From positions 105,070 through 169,069 of IMG/VR virus record IMGVR_UViG_3300043449_000492: 64,000 nucleotides of DNA; one strand, written 5' to 3'. This DNA comes from a virus. The notes below the pieces were generated by a model that worked only from the letters and a program-made list of their open reading frames with translations, had not been told where the DNA came from and did not search any database. A program made the translations under genes and the position numbers. This document shows, in pieces, positions 15,365-37,149 of the stretch. The number at the start of each line of letters is the position of its first letter. The stretch's first letter is position 1.

Positions 15365-15822
15365 GATTAATCTCCCATCGTGGAAATCTAACCGGTCCAA
15401 ACTTTACTGATGAGAATAAGCCTTGGTATATTGAAGAAGCTGTTAAAGCAGGATTTAATGTAGAGGTTGACATTTGGTATGTTAAAGGTAAGTGGTTCAC
15501 TGGTCATGACGAGCCACTTCATGAAGTAACGATTGAATGGTTATCTAATAAGAACTTTTGGCTACATTGTAAGAATGTAGAAGCATTTGAACAGATGACT
15601 TACATTTCACCACAGCTTCATTACTTTTGGCATGGCATTGATTGTTATACTCTAACAAGTGCTAATATACCTTGGGTCTATCCAGGGAAGCAGACATTCA
15701 AGACTGCGATATGTGTATTGCCCGAGCATGGTGAAGGACTTGATAAGATTAGGAATCTAGATGTGTATGGTTTCTGTTCCGATTATATTGAAAAGATTGC
15801 GGAGATTGTGAAATGCAAGTAA
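15361..15822 (+). CDS. Glycerophosphodiester phosphodiesterase-like protein
   Basis: 153 residues resembling a short GDPD/PI-PLC-like TIM barrel: LISHRG at the N-terminus, VEVDIWY with the acidic pair and FTGHDEP, three elements of the GDPD active site (HR, E-x-D, H). The family normally has about 240 residues, so this is a compact or partial barrel. ATGA overlap upstream; overlaps the dehydrogenase by ten bases. Role in sugar metabolism unclear. Confidence 0.6.
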   Translation: MRLISHRGNLTGPNFTDENKPWYIEEAVKAGFNVEVDIWYVKGKWFTGHDEPLHEVTIEWLSNKNFWLHCKNVEAFEQMTYISPQLHYFWHGIDCYTLTSANIPWVYPGKQTFKTAICVLPEHGEGLDKIRNLDVYGFCSDYIEKIAEIVKCK

Positions 15823-17048
15823 CTGTAATTGGCGCCGGCGGCCACGTTGGACTACCTTTTTCTCTTGTCGTTGCTGCAGCTGGGCATAATGTCTATGGTG
15901 TTGATATCAATGAAAAGGTTGTAGAAACACTAAATAAAGGTATCGTACCTTATATCGAACACGGTGCGGAAGAACTGTTGGCTAAGCATCTTAAGCAAGG
16001 CAACATTGCTTTTACTACACAATTTTTTTCTATTAAGGTCTCAGATGTTATCGCTGTGATGCTAGGGACACCAGTAGATGCAGAGAATAATCCTCGTCTT
16101 GATGACTTATTTAATTTCATTGATAATGCTCTTTTGCCTCGTATTCAGCGAGGGCAGCTTATCATCCTTCGTTCAACTATTTCGCCAGGTACTACAGAAG
16201 TAGTCAAAGAACGAATTGAAGAAGCTACGGGTTGGATTGAAGGCAAAGACTTTTATCTAGTCTTTTGTCCAGAACGAGTGCTGCAAACAAAGGGTATTGA
16301 AGAAACCTCAAAGTTGCCTGCACTCGTTGGAGCGTTCTCTGATGAGAGTTATAAGAAGGCTGCAGAGTTTCTAGCTACGTTTATTGATAATAGTTTGTTT
16401 CAGCTTACACCAAGAGAAGCCGAAATTGCAAAGTTAATGACAAACATGTGGCGTTATGTCTCGTTTGCTTTTGCTAATGAAATGTATATGATCGGAGACA
16501 AGCATGGCGTTGATATTCATGAAGTCATTAAAGCCTCAAACTACGGCTATGAGAGAATGGCTGTTCCAATGCCGGGACCAAATGTCGGTGGTCCTTGTCT
16601 CTTTAAAGATGGTAGGTTTCTTCTTGATAGTGTACCTTTTGCTGACCTTATTCAGGTTAGCTTTCTTGTTAATGAGGGGATGCCTGACTATATCTACCAC
16701 TCTATCACGAAACTTACTCCGAAACTAAAGAACGTATTGATTCTTGGTGCTACGTTTAAGGCAAACTGTGATGACACAAGAAACAGTCTATCATTCAAGA
16801 TGAAGAAAGTTTTGAAGAAGCATGGTGTAGAGGTAGACATGCTTGATCCTTTTATCAAGAATCTACAACCATCCGATAGCACTTTTGAGACTTATGATGC
16901 AGTAATTGTTATGACTCCTCATGACATGTTTAAAGATTATTATGGTCCACACATGTTTAGAAAAGATTGCATCGTTGCAGATGTTTGGAAGATGTGGGAC
17001 AAGAGTAAAGAAACAAAGAATGGAATTTATAGAGCAGGAGGCTTTTGA
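15813..17048 (+). CDS. UDP-glucose/GDP-mannose dehydrogenase family protein
   Basis: 411 residues, full length for the family. NAD-binding VIGAGGHVGLPFSLVVAAAGH at the N-terminus, the substrate-binding middle with ELTPREAEIAKLMTN-type sequence, catalytic Cys in NVGGPCLFKDG, and the C-terminal Rossmann domain FKANCDDTRNS. Oxidises a nucleotide sugar to its uronic acid; closest in feel to UDP-ManNAc dehydrogenase. Overlaps neighbours by ten and one bases. Confidence 0.92.
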   Translation: MQVTVIGAGGHVGLPFSLVVAAAGHNVYGVDINEKVVETLNKGIVPYIEHGAEELLAKHLKQGNIAFTTQFFSIKVSDVIAVMLGTPVDAENNPRLDDLFNFIDNALLPRIQRGQLIILRSTISPGTTEVVKERIEEATGWIEGKDFYLVFCPERVLQTKGIEETSKLPALVGAFSDESYKKAAEFLATFIDNSLFQLTPREAEIAKLMTNMWRYVSFAFANEMYMIGDKHGVDIHEVIKASNYGYERMAVPMPGPNVGGPCLFKDGRFLLDSVPFADLIQVSFLVNEGMPDYIYHSITKLTPKLKNVLILGATFKANCDDTRNSLSFKMKKVLKKHGVEVDMLDPFIKNLQPSDSTFETYDAVIVMTPHDMFKDYYGPHMFRKDCIVADVWKMWDKSKETKNGIYRAGGF

Positions 17049-19199: not shown

Positions 19200-20858
19200 A
19201 TGAAATACACTGCACCTGTCGATTCTACTCTCTTTCTTCTCAAAGACGTTCTCAAGTTTGATAATGAACTAACAGAGCCAATTCTTAGAGAAGCAGCAAA
19301 ACTATGTGAAGAAGTGATTGCTCCTACAAATCAAGAGGGTGATGAAGAGGGTTGTAAGTATGTCGAAAAAGAAGTCAAAACACCACAAGCATTCAAAGAA
19401 GCATGGCAAAAGTTTAGAGACGGAGGTTGGCTCGGACTCTCCGTTCCTGAAGCGTATGGTGGACAAGGCTTACCATATACACTTGCGTCTGCTATCAACG
19501 AATTTATATCCTCTTCTAACATGGGGTTTTCTCTTTATCCTGGCCTTACACGTGGAAATATCCAGGCTCTCCTCGAAGTAGGTAGCGAACCACAGAAGAA
19601 TATCTGGATCCCTTATCTAGCATCAGGTAAGTGGACTGGCACGATGAATCTTACTGAGCCTCATTGTGGAACTGATCTTGGTTTGTTGAAGACTAAGGCA
19701 GTTCCTGTTGGTGATGAAGGATATCATATCACAGGTCAAAAGATTTTCATTTCATGCGGTGAACACGATCTTGCGGAAAATATTCTACATCTTGTGCTTG
19801 CTCGAATTGAAGGTGATCCAGAAGGAGTCAAGGGCATTAGTATGTTTGCTGTGCCAAAGTTTATAGGTCCAGAGAGAAACAATGTCTCTTGTGGATCAAT
19901 CGAACATAAGATGGGTATTCACGGTTCATCAACTTGTGTTATGAACTATGATGGAGCATACGGTTATCTTGTTGGTGAACGCTGCAAAGGTCTCAATGCA
20001 ATGTTCATTATGATGAATGAAGCAAGACTTGGTGTTGCCGTTCAAGGTCTATCACAATCGGAGTTGGCTTATCAAAATGCTGTCTCATATGCTCAAGAAC
20101 GTATTCAGAGCGTTGCGCTTACGGATCCAAAAGGTGGATCAGTTGCCATTATCAATCATCCCGATGTTCGTCGTATGCTTATGGATATTCGTTGCATTAA
20201 CGAAGCTGCTAGACTTCTATGCTTGGAAGCGTCGATGCTTTGTGAAGATAAAAGCGATGCTGCTCAAGATAGATTAGGTTTGATGACACCAGTTCTCAAG
20301 GGTGTGTTAACAGACTATGGATTTGAGAATGCAGTAAAGGCTCAACAAGTTTGGGGAGGTCATGGTTACATTCGTGAGAACGGAATGGAGCAGATTGTTC
20401 GTGACGCTCGTATTGCTCAAATCTATGAAGGTGCTAATGGTATTCAGGCGCTTGACCTTGTTGCTCGTAAGTTGCCAAAGAACATGGGTCGTGCTATTCG
20501 TACCTTCTTTAAGGATAGTGAAGACTTGATTAACAAAGCATATGGTGCTGATCTGCATACAGTCGTGCAGCCTCTCACATCAGCAAGAGACGAACTAAGA
20601 CAAGCAACAGAGTGGCTTGTTGGTAATGCATTGACACTTCAAAATAATGCTGGTTCTGCATCGTATGATTATATGAAAATGTTCGGACTCGTATTGCTAG
20701 GTCTTGCTCATGTTCGTATCTGTATGGCTTCGGATGATAAGGAAAGACACCTAAATGCCAAATACTTTATGGAAAGGATTCTTCCTGAAACTCGATTCCT
20801 TTTGGAAAGAATTAAATCGGGAAGTGAAACAATGATGGAAGTTTCGTTTTTTAATTAA
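19200..20858 (+). CDS. Acyl-CoA dehydrogenase, DmdC-like long type
   Basis: 552 residues, apparently intact. It has the layout of the long acyl-CoA dehydrogenases that include 3-methylmercaptopropionyl-CoA dehydrogenase (DmdC): N-terminal YTAPVDSTLFLL, GGWLGLSVPEAYGGQGLP, the FAD/substrate segment NLTEPHCGTDLG (usually TEPxAGSDLG), KIFISCGEHDLAENI, WGGHGYIRENG, and the catalytic base in YEGANGIQALDLV, Glu410. These flavoenzymes form a trans-2,3 double bond in an acyl-CoA. It is about 40 residues shorter than cellular DmdC as I recall it. Divergent from the coiled-coil gene; not part of a visible pathway. A metabolic gene of this kind is unusual in a T4-like phage. Confidence 0.9.
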   Translation: MKYTAPVDSTLFLLKDVLKFDNELTEPILREAAKLCEEVIAPTNQEGDEEGCKYVEKEVKTPQAFKEAWQKFRDGGWLGLSVPEAYGGQGLPYTLASAINEFISSSNMGFSLYPGLTRGNIQALLEVGSEPQKNIWIPYLASGKWTGTMNLTEPHCGTDLGLLKTKAVPVGDEGYHITGQKIFISCGEHDLAENILHLVLARIEGDPEGVKGISMFAVPKFIGPERNNVSCGSIEHKMGIHGSSTCVMNYDGAYGYLVGERCKGLNAMFIMMNEARLGVAVQGLSQSELAYQNAVSYAQERIQSVALTDPKGGSVAIINHPDVRRMLMDIRCINEAARLLCLEASMLCEDKSDAAQDRLGLMTPVLKGVLTDYGFENAVKAQQVWGGHGYIRENGMEQIVRDARIAQIYEGANGIQALDLVARKLPKNMGRAIRTFFKDSEDLINKAYGADLHTVVQPLTSARDELRQATEWLVGNALTLQNNAGSASYDYMKMFGLVLLGLAHVRICMASDDKERHLNAKYFMERILPETRFLLERIKSGSETMMEVSFFN

Positions 20859-33148: not shown

Positions 33149-33223
33149 GGGGCATGAGTCGGACGCTAAGGCGCAGGACTGCAAATCCTTGAGAACCCGG
33201 TTGAACTCCGGGATGCCCCTCCA
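33149..33223 (+). tRNA. tRNA-Cys (GCA)
   Basis: 75 bases, acceptor GGGGCAT/ATGCCCC, loop CTGCAAA, T-loop TTGAACT, CCA encoded. The last bases of its CCA are part of the long inverted repeat that follows. Confidence 0.9.
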
Positions 33224-33329
33224 TTTCTTTCATAAGTGTTCTCGCCTAGAGAACATGGTTGCAAACTTGCTAGGTCGTTTCTTGGATAAGCTGAAATAGG
33301 CAAAGCGGAGAACACTTATGAAAGAAATG
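33222..33329 (+). ncRNA. Long hairpin spacer between tRNA-Cys and tRNA-Asn
   Basis: A perfect 22-base inverted repeat (33222-33243 and 33308-33329) encloses 64 bases that contain a further GCCTA/TAGGC pairing. It fills the whole space between two tRNAs, its left arm beginning inside the CCA of tRNA-Cys. There is no ORF of note. It could be an RNase III processing stem or a stable small RNA. Confidence 0.65.
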
Positions 33330-33334
33330 AACAT

Positions 33335-33410
33335 TTCCCGATAGCTCAGTTGGTAGAGCAAGCGACTGTTAATCGCTGTGTCCCTGGTTCGAGCCCAGGT
33401 CGGGAAGCCA
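33335..33410 (+). tRNA. tRNA-Asn (GUU)
   Basis: 76 bases, acceptor TTCCCGA/TCGGGAA, loop CTGTTAA, T-loop TTCGAGC, CCA encoded. Confidence 0.93.
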
Positions 33411-33414
33411 ATAC

Positions 33415-33481
33415 TATAGTGGTCTACTGGAATGATGCCACGTCGGATAAGCAAGCAACGGCAAGTTGCTTCACCACTATA
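33415..33481 (+). ncRNA. Hairpin spacer between tRNA-Asn and tRNA-Lys
   Basis: TATAGTGGT (33415-33423) pairs with ACCACTATA (33473-33481); inside, AAGCAAC/GTTGCTT (33453-33459, 33465-33471) form a second hairpin with loop GGCAA. It fills the gap between two tRNAs. Confidence 0.5.
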
Positions 33482-33482
33482 T

Positions 33483-33558
33483 GGGTCCATAGCTCAATAG
33501 GTAGAGCAAGGGTCTTTTAAACCCAAGGTTCCGAGTTCAAATCTCGGTGGACCCTCCA
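33483..33558 (+). tRNA. tRNA-Lys (UUU)
   Basis: 76 bases, acceptor GGGTCCA/TGGACCC, loop CTTTTAA, T-loop TTCAAAT, CCA encoded. Confidence 0.93.
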
Positions 33559-33559
33559 T

Positions 33560-33635
33560 GCTGGTATAGCTCAGACGGTAGAGCAGTTGCCTCGTAAGCA
33601 TCAGGTCGTGGGTTCGATTCCTGCTACCAGCACCA
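33560..33635 (+). tRNA. tRNA-Thr (CGU)
   Basis: 76 bases, acceptor GCTGGTA/TACCAGC, loop CTCGTAA, T-loop TTCGATT, CCA encoded. One base from the preceding tRNA. Reads ACG only. Confidence 0.9.
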
Positions 33636-33650
33636 CTTTTATAGAGAGTA

Positions 33651-34190
33651 ATGAGTATAAAGCATAAACATCACATTATACCGAGGCATATGGGCGGAAC
33701 AGATGATTCAACAAACATCGTTGACCTGACGATAGAGGAACATGCCGAAGCGCACAGAATCTTGTATGAGAAATATGGTAATGAGAAAGATAAACTTGCT
33801 TGGCAAGGATTGCTTGGTCTTGTTCCAAAAGCTGATATTATGCAAAGTCTTCATCGATTAGGTAGAGAGAAGGCAGATAACATTATAAAAGAAAAATATG
33901 GAGTATCTAATCCAGGTCAGTTGTTACATAATAGACAAAGAACCTCGGAACAAAATAGAAGACTACATAAAGAAGGTAGAATGTCCGCTCCTGATTGGAC
34001 GGGCAAAAAACATAGAGAAGAAACGAAACGATTGATTGGAGCGAAAAACTCAGTGATACAATCGGGGAGTGGAAACTCACAGTTCGGTACTATGTGGATA
34101 ACAGATGGCAAACAGAGTAAAAAGATAAAAAGAGTAGATGCTATACCCGAAGGATGGTATAGAGGTAGAGTTATTGCGGACGTGGTATAG
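33651..34190 (+). CDS. HNH homing endonuclease
   Basis: 179 residues. N-terminal HNH core [32 protein letters not shown] (split here as [16 protein letters not shown] and [14 protein letters not shown]), then helices and a C-terminal DNA-binding part with [10 protein letters not shown] (NUMOD3-like) and [15 protein letters not shown]. Free-standing homing endonucleases copy themselves into related genomes. The last 15 bases of the gene are the first 15 of tRNA-Gly, suggesting insertion at or beside that tRNA. Frames are intact. Confidence 0.85.
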
Positions 34191-34251
34191 ATAGATGTGC
34201 CCTAGACTTCCAATCTAGAGAGGACCAGAGCGTTACTGGCCGTCCGCTCCA
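34176..34251 (+). tRNA. tRNA-Gly-like (UCC) with non-canonical D- and T-loops
   Basis: 76 bases. Acceptor GCGGACG/CGTCCGC, U73 as in tRNA-Gly, CCA encoded; anticodon stem CTAGA/TCTAG with loop CTTCCAA. The T-loop reads AGCGTTA instead of TTCxAxx, and the D-loop (AGATAGAT) lacks the GG pair, so the usual elbow contact cannot form. The 5' end overlaps the HNH gene. Either a specialised or a decaying tRNA. Confidence 0.65.
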
Positions 34252-34298
34252 ATAACCATCATAGGAGTTGAACGCCCTATGGTCACTATATATTCTCT

Positions 34299-34357
34299 GA
34301 GTTGTCGAGGTATATAGACATGAGTATCTGGCTACTCGGAGGTCCAGAAGACAACTC
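34299..34357 (+). ncRNA. Structured spacer with alternative helices
   Basis: Within the 212-base gap between tRNA-Gly and the CAU tRNA, GAGTTGTC (34299-34306) pairs with GACAACTC (34350-34357), with GAGTA/TACTC inside. The segment AACTCGTC (34353-34360) can instead pair with GACGAGTT (34419-34426). Further hairpins are GCCAC/GTGGC at 34379-34397 and GGGAG/CTCCC at 34399-34417. No ORF of substance is seen in the gap. Confidence 0.4.
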
Positions 34358-34463
34358 GTCTTATCAGTTCAATAATCTGCCACAACGAAATAGTGGCTGG
34401 GAGATAGTAGTAACTCCCGACGAGTTCGTCCATGGGGCCGACGTTAAATGTCCCCACCAGTTT

Positions 34464-34538
34464 AGCGGGTGGGTGGTTTAGTATCACAGGTGCCTCATAC
34501 GCACCTAGAAGTGGGGGCAGATCCCACACCCGCTTCCA
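34464..34538 (+). tRNA. tRNA with CAU anticodon and non-canonical loops
   Basis: 75 bases. Acceptor AGCGGGT/ACCCGCT, U73, CCA encoded; anticodon stem GGTGC/GCACC with loop CTCATAC; T-stem GTGGG/CCCAC is perfect but its loop reads GGCAGAT, and the D-loop lacks GG. Could be Met or lysidine-modified Ile; U73 fits neither well. Shares its odd elbow with the tRNA-Gly 212 bases upstream. Confidence 0.6.
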
Positions 34539-34550
34539 ATAACCGTGCTT

Positions 34551-34642
34551 GGCCCGTCACGGCATATAAATCTTTCGGGGGTCAACATTAGGGGTTCGCC
34601 TTCCATCGTGAGCGCCTTGTGTCAATGGCTAACGGGCCGCCA
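34551..34642 (+). ncRNA. tRNA-like stem element ending in GCCA
   Basis: GGCCCGT (34551-34557) pairs with ACGGGCC (34632-34638) and is followed by GCCA, exactly like a tRNA acceptor; the 92-base length fits a class II tRNA. However, no convincing anticodon or T arm can be drawn; TCACG/CGTGA (34557-34561, 34607-34611) is the best inner helix. Either a decayed tRNA or another structured spacer. Confidence 0.35.
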
Positions 34643-34646
34643 GTTT

Positions 34647-34720
34647 ATCGGTGTGGTGTAATGGTAGCACAAGGGTCTCCAAAACTCTTAGTTGGGGTTC
34701 GAATCCTCACTCCGGTGCCA
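34647..34720 (+). tRNA. tRNA-Trp (CCA)
   Basis: 74 bases, acceptor ATCGGTG/CTCCGGT with one T-T mismatch, loop CTCCAAA, T-loop TTCGAAT, then GCCA. Confidence 0.85.
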
Positions 34721-34721
34721 G

Positions 34722-34824
34722 TATTATAATGTGAGTGGATAACTATCAGGACGCTGCCGTTGAAGTGGGATATCGGGTTGATCGCCGAGAAGACATGGAG
34801 GGGTTATCCACTCTCATTATAATA
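34722..34824 (+). ncRNA. Long hairpin spacer between tRNA-Trp and tRNA-Pro
   Basis: 22-base arms (34722-34743 and 34803-34824) pair at 21 of 22 positions and enclose 59 bases with an inner TCGG/CCGA hairpin. The arms end two bases after tRNA-Trp and three before tRNA-Pro. Same design and arm length as the element at 33222. Confidence 0.65.
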
Positions 34825-34827
34825 TAT

Positions 34828-34905
34828 CGGGGTGTAGCGCAGTCTGGTTAGCGTGGCTGATTTGGAGTCAGTAGGTCGCAGGTTCGAATCCTGCTACCCC
34901 GACCA
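34828..34905 (+). tRNA. tRNA-Pro (UGG)
   Basis: 78 bases, acceptor CGGGGTG/TACCCCG, loop TTTGGAG, T-loop TTCGAAT, CCA encoded. Confidence 0.93.
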
Positions 34906-35934: not shown

Positions 35935-35991
35935 GGGCAAGTGCCAGGGGCATTCTAGATAGATGGGGTTCGAGTCCCCTCTTGTCCACCA
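35935..35991 (+). tRNA. Truncated 57-base tRNA-like gene
   Basis: Good acceptor (GGGCAAG/CTTGTCC, A73, CCA) and T-arm (GGGG-TTCGAGT-CCCC), but only 22 bases lie between acceptor and T-stem: a TGCC/GGC A hairpin with a three-base loop and TTCTAGATAGA. One of the D or anticodon arms is missing. Probably a deletion remnant, though its ends are well kept. Confidence 0.6.
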
Positions 35992-36070: not shown

Positions 36071-36079
36071 TTAAATAAG

Positions 36080-36131
36080 AGTTGCCACGCTTCCTCTATG
36101 CTTAACGAGATAGATAGCGCACCCGGCAACT
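36080..36131 (+). ncRNA. Hairpin spacer between tRNA-Glu and tRNA-Phe
   Basis: AGTTGCC (36080-36086) pairs with GGCAACT (36125-36131), enclosing 38 bases that include GAGATAGATAG. It occupies most of the gap between two tRNAs. Confidence 0.4.
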
Positions 36132-36139
36132 TACTTTTC

Positions 36140-36678: not shown

Positions 36679-37149
36679 ATGAAGAAGGTATGGGTATTTG
36701 ATATTGACGGAACGCTTGCGGATAATGAGCATCGGCAGCATCACTTAGATGGTAAAAAGAACTGGGACGCTTTCTTTGCGGAACAGCATAAGGATGAGCC
36801 ATACCAGGCAGTTCTAGATGTTCTTCATGCTCTCGCTTTTGATCGCTGCAAGGTGCTTGGTGATAGAGTTATCATTGTTACTGCCCGTGACGAGCGGTTC
36901 CGTGATGATACACTTGATTGGCTGCATAAGCATATCGAGTTTGATATATCCGATAGTGTCTATATGCGTCCTCTGGGTCATCGTGGTAATGACGATGTTC
37001 TAAAGGTCGATATCATCAAGCAGTGGCTTGTTGATCATCCTGGTTATAAAGTTGGCGCCATCTTTGATGATCGTCACCGTATCATTGATGCGTTTCGTAA
37101 CGAAGGTTGGTATACCTTCGAGTGCAACCAGGCTCGTAAAGAGTTTTAA
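36679..37149 (+). CDS. HAD phosphatase resembling the T4 Pnkp 3'-phosphatase domain
   Basis: 156 residues with HAD motifs: FDIDGTLADNEHR (nucleophile Asp), IIVTARDERFRDD (motif II Thr), KVDIIKQW (Lys) and AIFDDRHRIIDAFRNEG (acidic motif). The order and the VTAR, KxxII and IDDR-type segments match the C-terminal phosphatase domain of T4 polynucleotide kinase; the kinase domain is absent. Located among tRNA genes, so RNA end-healing is a reasonable inference; a nucleotidase is the alternative. tRNA-Ile starts on the next base after its stop. Confidence 0.78.
   Translation: MKKVWVFDIDGTLADNEHRQHHLDGKKNWDAFFAEQHKDEPYQAVLDVLHALAFDRCKVLGDRVIIVTARDERFRDDTLDWLHKHIEFDISDSVYMRPLGHRGNDDVLKVDIIKQWLVDHPGYKVGAIFDDRHRIIDAFRNEGWYTFECNQARKEF

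What the first reader, a model, noticed from the sequence alone, without database searches (positions are those of the whole stretch)
33222..34824. tRNA spacers built as long hairpins of similar design
The Cys-Asn and Trp-Pro gaps are each filled by 22-base inverted arms (22/22 and 21/22 paired) enclosing 64 and 59 bases, with arm ends 0-5 bases from the tRNAs. The Asn-Lys and Glu-Phe gaps hold shorter versions. They may be RNase III processing stems or embedded small RNAs; arm sequences differ, so structure rather than sequence seems conserved.
Basis: seen in the sequence. Interest (0 to 1): 0.6.

Follow-up and report, generated by a model that had tools for sequence, protein, structure and literature searches.

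The report
Stem-closed RNA cassettes between phage tRNAs
Between its transfer-RNA genes this T4-like phage carries two short RNA segments, each clamped shut by a near-perfect 20-22 base-pair stem; related phages fill the same gap with unrelated sequences clamped the same way, so the clamp is under selection in the RNA and probably marks small RNA modules of unknown function.

Summary
Two 22-base inverted arms (22/22 and 21/22) fill the Cys-Asn and Trp-Pro gaps; no dinucleotide shuffle of the cluster exceeds 14 pairs. The Asn-Lys (9 bp) and Glu-Phe (8 bp) versions are weaker.

Relatives from IMG/VR settle "structure, not sequence". In 8 of 8 non-redundant hairpin-sized Cys-Asn gaps, the gap ends pair from the Cys CCA end to a few bases before tRNA-Asn, although the sequences fall into many unrelated families. 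Other slots look random. Long stems occur almost only inside tRNA clusters. G-U mismatches outnumber A-C 12 to 1, so selection acts on the tRNA-sense RNA. One family (9 sequences) shows compensatory changes in the closing stem and in interior helices. The outer half of the stem belongs to the slot, the inner half to the cassette. Empty slots and cassettes moved to other slots exist. Ten of 26 interiors (none in this window) hold a tRNA T-arm, and one matches the Rfam tRNA model. The closest matches are T4 rnaC/rnaD by location; no Rfam family fits.

Most likely these are exchangeable small structured RNAs, insulated by the clamp and released by tRNA processing and/or RNase III. Release and function are untested.

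The parts
33149..33223 (+). tRNA-Cys (gca) incl. CCA; upstream neighbour of the first hairpin, missed by ARAGORN default
   Evidence: Rfam tRNA 39.6 bits; ARAGORN at lowered threshold 33149-33223
33222..33243 (+). 5' arm of Cys-Asn hairpin (first 2 bases are the tRNA CCA end)
   Evidence: 22/22 complementary to 33308-33329; shuffles never exceed 14 pairs
33244..33307 (+). 64-nt interior of the Cys-Asn cassette; no sequence relative found
   Evidence: no match; folds as an independent domain between the tRNAs
33308..33329 (+). 3' arm of Cys-Asn hairpin
   Evidence: pair probability about 1.0 in the precursor
33335..33410 (+). tRNA-Asn (gtt); the conserved downstream neighbour of the hairpin slot in relatives
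   Evidence: slot test
33415..33481 (+). short Asn-Lys hairpin (9-bp closing stem 33415-33423/33473-33481 plus an internal 7-bp hairpin)
   Evidence: score 9, 0/100 shuffles; fold z -2.2; weak
34647..34720 (+). tRNA-Trp
34722..34743 (+). 5' arm of Trp-Pro hairpin
   Evidence: 21/22 complementary to 34803-34824
34744..34802 (+). 59-nt interior of the Trp-Pro cassette; relatives have only 7-8 nt (67 nt in L004) and no long stem in this gap
   Evidence: no sequence relative in phages
34803..34824 (+). 3' arm of Trp-Pro hairpin
34828..34905 (+). tRNA-Pro
36079..36132 (+). short Glu-Phe hairpin (8-bp closing stem, 8 and 7 nt from the tRNAs)
   Evidence: z -3.7; L047 has an unrelated hairpin in the same Glu-Phe gap

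Best explanation
The two long hairpins are members of a diverse class of exchangeable, stem-closed small-RNA cassettes that sit between tRNAs in the tRNA operon of a group of aquatic T4-like phages. The long stem (about two helical turns) ties the ends of the inserted RNA together flush with the neighbouring tRNAs. The insert then folds as an independent domain and leaves only a few unpaired bases between the tRNAs. Shown here: the stems, their location, conservation of pairing without conservation of sequence, selection on the tRNA-sense RNA strand, and swapping of interiors. Inferred: the cassette is released from the long tRNA precursor by cuts that mature the neighbours (RNase P at the 5' end of the downstream tRNA, 3'-end maturation after CCA of the upstream one) and/or by RNase III within the stem, and persists as a small stable RNA comparable to T4 rnaC/rnaD. 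What the interior does is unknown; the fast turnover and frequent tRNA-like pieces suggest interaction with tRNA-binding or tRNA-attacking host factors.
For: (1) Slot test without selecting for stems: among 208 non-redundant tRNA gaps of 45-260 nt, all 8 Cys-Asn gaps have complementary ends (scores 14-25; no shuffle of any of them reached its score), starting at the Cys CCA end and ending 2-3 nt (7 in the window) before Asn; most other slots are at the random level. (2) Same anatomy directly upstream of tRNA-Asn in more distant relatives L079, L109, L112, L125, L130, L139. (3) Long stems: 43 in 217 kb of tRNA clusters versus 1 in 1,545 kb elsewhere, that one (L030) being a cassette at a truncated contig end next to a tRNA (counts include near-identical contigs). 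(4) Mismatches in the stems are G-U rather than A-C, 12:1 over family representatives, p = 0.002, so the tRNA-sense RNA is the selected molecule. (5) Family A (9 sequences, 155-183 nt): 17 of 40 pairs with changes on both sides, 0/500 shuffles; interior helices alone 7 of 16 pairs, 2/500. (6) Family B also has compensated interior pairs. (7) Modular swapping: the outer arm ATTACTATTA closes families A and B (a close variant closes L014); AATACTCTTA closes B and L028; family A is found in Cys-Asn, Gly-Met and pre-Ala slots with different outer arms but the same inner arm CGYCAACGGA. (8) Empty and ORF-filled versions of the slot exist. (9) 10 of 26 interiors contain a tRNA T-arm, 0.1 expected; L139's interior scores 29.7 bits with the Rfam tRNA model, above its gathering score.
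Against: No expression data; release and stability are inferred. The window's own two interiors have no sequence relatives, show no T-arm, and their interior pairing is not individually supported; membership in the class rests on anatomy and slot. The Trp-Pro hairpin is unique to this phage among the relatives examined. DNA template switching could contribute to the perfect arms. An 18/19 inverted repeat also lies inside a coding gene elsewhere in the record. T4 rnaC and rnaD, the nearest functional precedent, have no long closing stem. In the folded Trp-Pro precursor the hairpin forms but the two tRNAs mispair with each other, so insulation is not shown there.
Confidence: 0.6

Rival explanations
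1. Pure processing stems. The hairpins are RNase III sites (like the leader-trailer stalks of rRNA operons) that separate tRNA precursors; the enclosed 45-146 nt are inert filler.
For: Stems of 20-27 bp, near perfect, flush with tRNA ends are generic RNase III substrates (established knowledge). Stem pairing is conserved while most interiors differ. Mismatches fall mostly at pairs 9-17, with the outer 8 pairs nearly always intact.
Against: Interior helices of families A and B covary and hold invariant blocks; interiors travel as units between slots; many hold T-arms. The same slot works with no hairpin at all in L004, L026, L070, L071 and L073, and many gaps in these clusters are 2-8 nt without stems, so the tRNAs do not need it.
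Confidence: 0.2
2. A DNA-level mutational product. Template switching at quasi-palindromes during phage replication keeps making and perfecting inverted repeats; the hairpins have little or no RNA function.
For: The mechanism is documented, first seen in T4 rIIB among others (PMC7202029), and can create and maintain RNA hairpins in one event (PMC8794818). The outer 5' arm TTACTATTA is already present in hairpin-less slots (L026, L071), as if the 3' arm were copied from it. An 18/19 inverted repeat sits inside a coding gene of the same phage.
Against: Confinement of long stems to tRNA clusters (43 versus 1 in seven times more DNA), the G-U excess over A-C, the fixed Cys-Asn slot and covarying short interior helices all point to selection on RNA. 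The mechanism may still explain how the arms arise.
Confidence: 0.12
3. Selfish or mobile sequence. The cassettes are small mobile DNA elements or homing-endonuclease target blocks that spread between tRNA gaps.
For: Presence/absence polymorphism and transfer between slots; homing endonuclease genes lie in related tRNA clusters (L139 region matches Seg-like endonucleases).
Against: No shared terminal sequence was seen; the outer arms match the slot, not the element; no associated enzyme inside; RNA-strand bias in mismatches.
Confidence: 0.05
4. Intrinsic transcription terminators or attenuators within the tRNA operon.
For: Stable hairpins in intergenic gaps.
Against: Neither hairpin is followed by a T run (33328-33340 TGAACATTTCCCG; 34825-34835 TATCGGGGTGT); loops of 59-64 nt and a tRNA a few bases downstream are not terminator-like.
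Confidence: 0.03

Closest known systems
T4 species 1 and 2 RNAs (rnaC, rnaD)
   Same: Small non-tRNA RNAs at the end of a T4-type phage tRNA cluster, abutting tRNA genes, function unknown; rnaC contains a tRNA T-arm like 10 of 26 of the cassettes here.
   Different: rnaC/rnaD show no long closing stem in the fold and no sequence similarity was found; the window's own interiors have no T-arm.
GOLLD and ROOL RNAs of phages
   Same: Structured RNAs of unknown function encoded in phages, often near tRNA islands (PMC12286853).
   Different: Much larger RNAs (many GOLLD members exceed 800 nt) with their own Rfam models, none of which matched the window or relatives.
Bacterial Y RNAs (YrlA)
   Same: From established knowledge: a tRNA-mimicking module closed by a long terminal stem; the L139 cassette has this layout.
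   Different: The YrlA model (RF02553) does not match any cassette tested; its only weak hits fall on genuine tRNAs. The window's cassettes show no tRNA module.
rRNA-operon processing stalks cut by RNase III
   Same: Long helix formed by sequences flanking an RNA that is to be cut out of a polycistronic transcript.
   Different: Here the enclosed RNA is 45-146 nt, varied, and sits between tRNAs; cleavage not shown.

Membership tests
T4 rnaC/rnaD-type stable RNAs | located in a phage tRNA cluster, adjacent to tRNA genes | tested here: met
T4 rnaC/rnaD-type stable RNAs | sequence or fold similarity to rnaC/rnaD | tested here: not met
   no blastn match of either hairpin in the phage collection; T4 RNAs lack the closing stem
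T4 rnaC/rnaD-type stable RNAs | accumulates as a discrete stable RNA during infection | not testable with these tools
   no RNA data
YrlA (bacterial Y RNA) | match to RF02553 above gathering score | tested here: not met
YrlA (bacterial Y RNA) | tRNA-like module closed by a long stem | tested here: inconclusive
   met in L139 (tRNA model 29.7 bits inside the hairpin); not seen in the window's cassettes
YrlA (bacterial Y RNA) | Ro60-binding site / partner protein | not tested
   -
GOLLD / ROOL | match to the Rfam models | tested here: not met
RNase III processing site | near-perfect double-stranded RNA of about two turns | tested here: met
RNase III processing site | staggered cleavage in the stem in vivo | not testable with these tools
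   needs end mapping
Intrinsic terminator | GC-rich stem with a small loop followed by a U run | tested here: not met
   sequence after both 3' arms

The most novel reading that the evidence does not exclude
The Cys-Asn gap is a dedicated, fast-turning-over docking slot for small RNAs: a slot-specific outer half-stem and a cassette-specific inner half-stem add up to about two helical turns. The cassettes, several of them tRNA mimics with a T-arm, are phage counter-defence or host-takeover RNAs (decoys for tRNA-cutting or tRNA-binding host proteins) diversified by an arms race.
Probability: 0.2. Interest if true: 0.8.

Novelty: new variant of a known kind. Interest (0 to 1): 0.6.

Why it matters
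Non-tRNA RNAs in phage tRNA clusters have been known since T4 rnaC/rnaD, but their functions are unknown and homology searches fail because their sequences turn over. Here one fixed position holds many unrelated RNAs that share only a closing stem. That gives a sequence-independent way to find such RNAs (complementary gap ends flush with tRNAs) and a set of natural variants to test whether they are released, stable and functional. The composite stem (slot half plus cassette half) is also a clear natural case for asking how long perfect stems arise and are maintained.

Tried and rejected
Exact arm pattern of the Cys-Asn hairpin in all IMG/VR contigs: none. Window hairpins and a family A cassette against 50,697 phage records by blastn: none. 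A loose 7+7-base pattern for family A returned mostly chance matches; the specific motif pattern worked. Suspected GOLLD in the long gaps of distant relatives: not found, and the region in L139 instead matches homing endonucleases. T4 rnaC/rnaD as the same structure: no long stem. YrlA: not matched. T4 RNA ligase 1 in this phage: no hit, but the control genomes also gave none, so uninformative. Terminators: rejected from the sequence. The GGATAAGC string shared by the Cys-Asn and Asn-Lys interiors is only 8 bases and was not pursued. The tRNA-like stretch in the Met-Trp gap folds no better than shuffles (z -0.65) and was not counted. Long stems in the fetched stretches of T4, Erwinia SNUABM_55, Xanthomonas X1 and Synechococcus RB11-B tRNA clusters: none.

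Full report
SETTING. The window is bases 105070-169069 of a 169-kb IMG/VR virus record. It encodes a T4-type phage: its DNA polymerase is about 50% identical to those of T4-like cyanophages, and polymerase, UvsX-type and gp41-type genes precede the tRNA cluster (named from the translations and from Cr30's annotation). ARAGORN finds 23 tRNA genes between 32299 and 37723. Rfam adds tRNA-Cys at 33149, and ARAGORN at a lowered threshold adds tRNA-Gly at 34176. The host is unknown; an acyl-CoA dehydrogenase gene (19200-20858) is closest to alphaproteobacterial proteins (53% identity), and Caulobacter phage Cr30 has the same polymerase-recombinase-helicase-tRNA order, so an alphaproteobacterium is a guess.

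OBSERVATION. The two long hairpins are real, at the stated coordinates and far beyond chance, and are the two longest inverted repeats found in the 169-kb record. The first arm overlaps the CCA of tRNA-Cys by two bases. The shorter Asn-Lys and Glu-Phe hairpins exist but are 9 and 8 bp and only moderately better than shuffled sequence.

RELATIVES. Searches with the UvsX-type and helicase-type proteins fetched 151 loci, many with the syntenic tRNA cluster. A test that did not select for stems took every gap of 45-260 nt between neighbouring tRNAs, removed near-duplicates (208 gaps left) and scored pairing of the gap ends. All 8 Cys-Asn gaps score 14-25, and none of their shuffles reaches the observed score; nearly all other slots sit at the random level. 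The window's Trp-Pro gap is the main exception, and L262 has a Cys-Ile case. In more distant relatives the hairpin lies 2-4 nt before tRNA-Asn even where no tRNA-Cys is found upstream. Other Cys-Asn gaps are empty (8-21 nt in L004, L026, L070, L071, L073) or hold a small ORF (L025, L050; both just over the length limit of the test). The window's Trp-Pro gap is only 7-8 nt in most relatives (67 nt without a long stem in L004), so that hairpin looks like a lineage-specific insertion.

DIVERSITY. By blastn the cassettes fall into about fourteen unrelated groups. Family A is the best sampled: L004, L005, L008, L040, L047, L262, L280, L282, L283. It has invariant blocks, 97.7% paired cells, 17 of 40 pairs changed on both sides and kept (0/500 shuffles), and interior helices that covary on their own (7 of 16 pairs, 2/500). 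The structure was derived from this same alignment, so the controls lean in its favour. Family B (L031, L046, L262) also has compensated interior pairs. The stem is composite: the outer ten or so pairs follow the slot and clade (ATTACTATTA closes families A and B, a close variant closes L014; AATACTCTTA closes B and L028; TTGATAATA closes A in the slot before tRNA-Ala), while the inner pairs follow the family (CGYCAACGGA for A, CAGATATGCACC for L079 and L125). The outer 5' arm sequence is already present in empty slots of the same clade (TTACTATTA in L026 and L071).

RNA OR DNA. Two facts favour RNA. Long stems are confined to tRNA clusters: 43 in 217 kb versus 1 in 1,545 kb, the one being a cassette at a contig end; counts include near-identical contigs. 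Non-Watson-Crick positions are G-U far more often than A-C on the tRNA-sense strand, 12:1 over one or two representatives per family, p = 0.002, and 19:3 over all. DNA template switching, known from T4 and other systems (PMC7202029) and shown to create and maintain RNA hairpins (PMC8794818), is a plausible source of the arms but does not by itself explain these biases.

INTERIORS. Ten of 26 interiors contain a canonical T-arm, 0.1 expected in shuffles. In L139 the interior reaches 29.7 bits with the Rfam tRNA model, above its gathering score, although the anticodon position is a short tetraloop-like hairpin (by inspection). L028 carries D-arm- and T-arm-like pieces (by inspection). The window's own interiors show none of this. 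No Rfam family other than tRNA fits.

MECHANISM. The simplest reading is a small RNA cassette insulated by a clamp, so that the neighbouring tRNAs still see a gap of a few bases. Whole-precursor folding keeps the clamp intact in both places and keeps tRNA-Cys and tRNA-Asn apart from it; the minimum-energy fold of the Trp-Pro precursor keeps the hairpin but mispairs the two tRNAs with each other, so insulation is supported for Cys-Asn only. Release by RNase P at the downstream tRNA and by 3' maturation or RNase III at the upstream side follows from established tRNA and RNase III biology but was not shown. T4 rnaC/rnaD are the nearest precedent by location and, for rnaC, by the T-arm, but they lack the clamp.

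LIMITS. There are no expression data, the window's two cassettes have no sequence relatives, and counts of loci are not independent. Confidence is high that these are RNA structures under selection, moderate that they are released small RNAs, low for any specific function.

Noticed in passing
window 36679-37149: An ORF between tRNA-His and tRNA-Ile matches the polynucleotide kinase 3'-phosphatase domain (PF25109, E 6e-18), hinting at a T4 PseT-like RNA repair function inside the tRNA cluster.
   Followed up: partly
window 19200-20858: The phage encodes a full-length acyl-CoA dehydrogenase-like protein (552 aa), best cellular relatives 53% identical in alphaproteobacteria; unusual metabolic cargo for a T4-like phage.
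   Followed up: partly
window 35935-35990: A short tRNA-like stretch between Lys and Glu: acceptor GGGCAAG/CTTGTCC, a canonical T-arm and encoded ACC(A), but no room for normal D and anticodon arms; weak mascRNA-like hit (18 bits).
   Followed up: no
window 34551-34642: Met-Trp gap holds a stretch with tRNA-like acceptor ends GGCCCGT...ACGGGCC-G-CCA but no recognised tRNA; overall fold no better than shuffles.
   Followed up: partly
L288 19830-19981 and 20222-20352 (Caulobacter phage Cr30, record 144853-145004 and 145245-145375, minus strand): A cultured phage has a 23/23 stem closing 106 nt and a 19/22 stem closing 87 nt between the helicase gene and tRNA-Gly/Asn, not flush with tRNAs; an accessible model.
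   Followed up: partly
L328 15677-15827 (record G000 15677-15827): An 18/19 inverted repeat (113-nt spacer) lies at the start of a 305-aa coding ORF, possibly a template-switch product.
   Followed up: partly
window 33238-33254 versus 33308-33313: The 5' arm end GTTCTC can pair either with GAGAAC five bases downstream or with the distant 3' arm; family A has a similar choice (GGATCAA with TTGGTCC or TTTGATCC in L008). Possible alternative folds.
   Followed up: no
L025 10213-10293 and L047 6748-6825: Another recurring cassette with a shared core (AGTAAGTCCA..A..GGGTCGCAACCT..GGGCAA) and different, compensated closing stems in Glu-Lys and Glu-Phe gaps.
   Followed up: no
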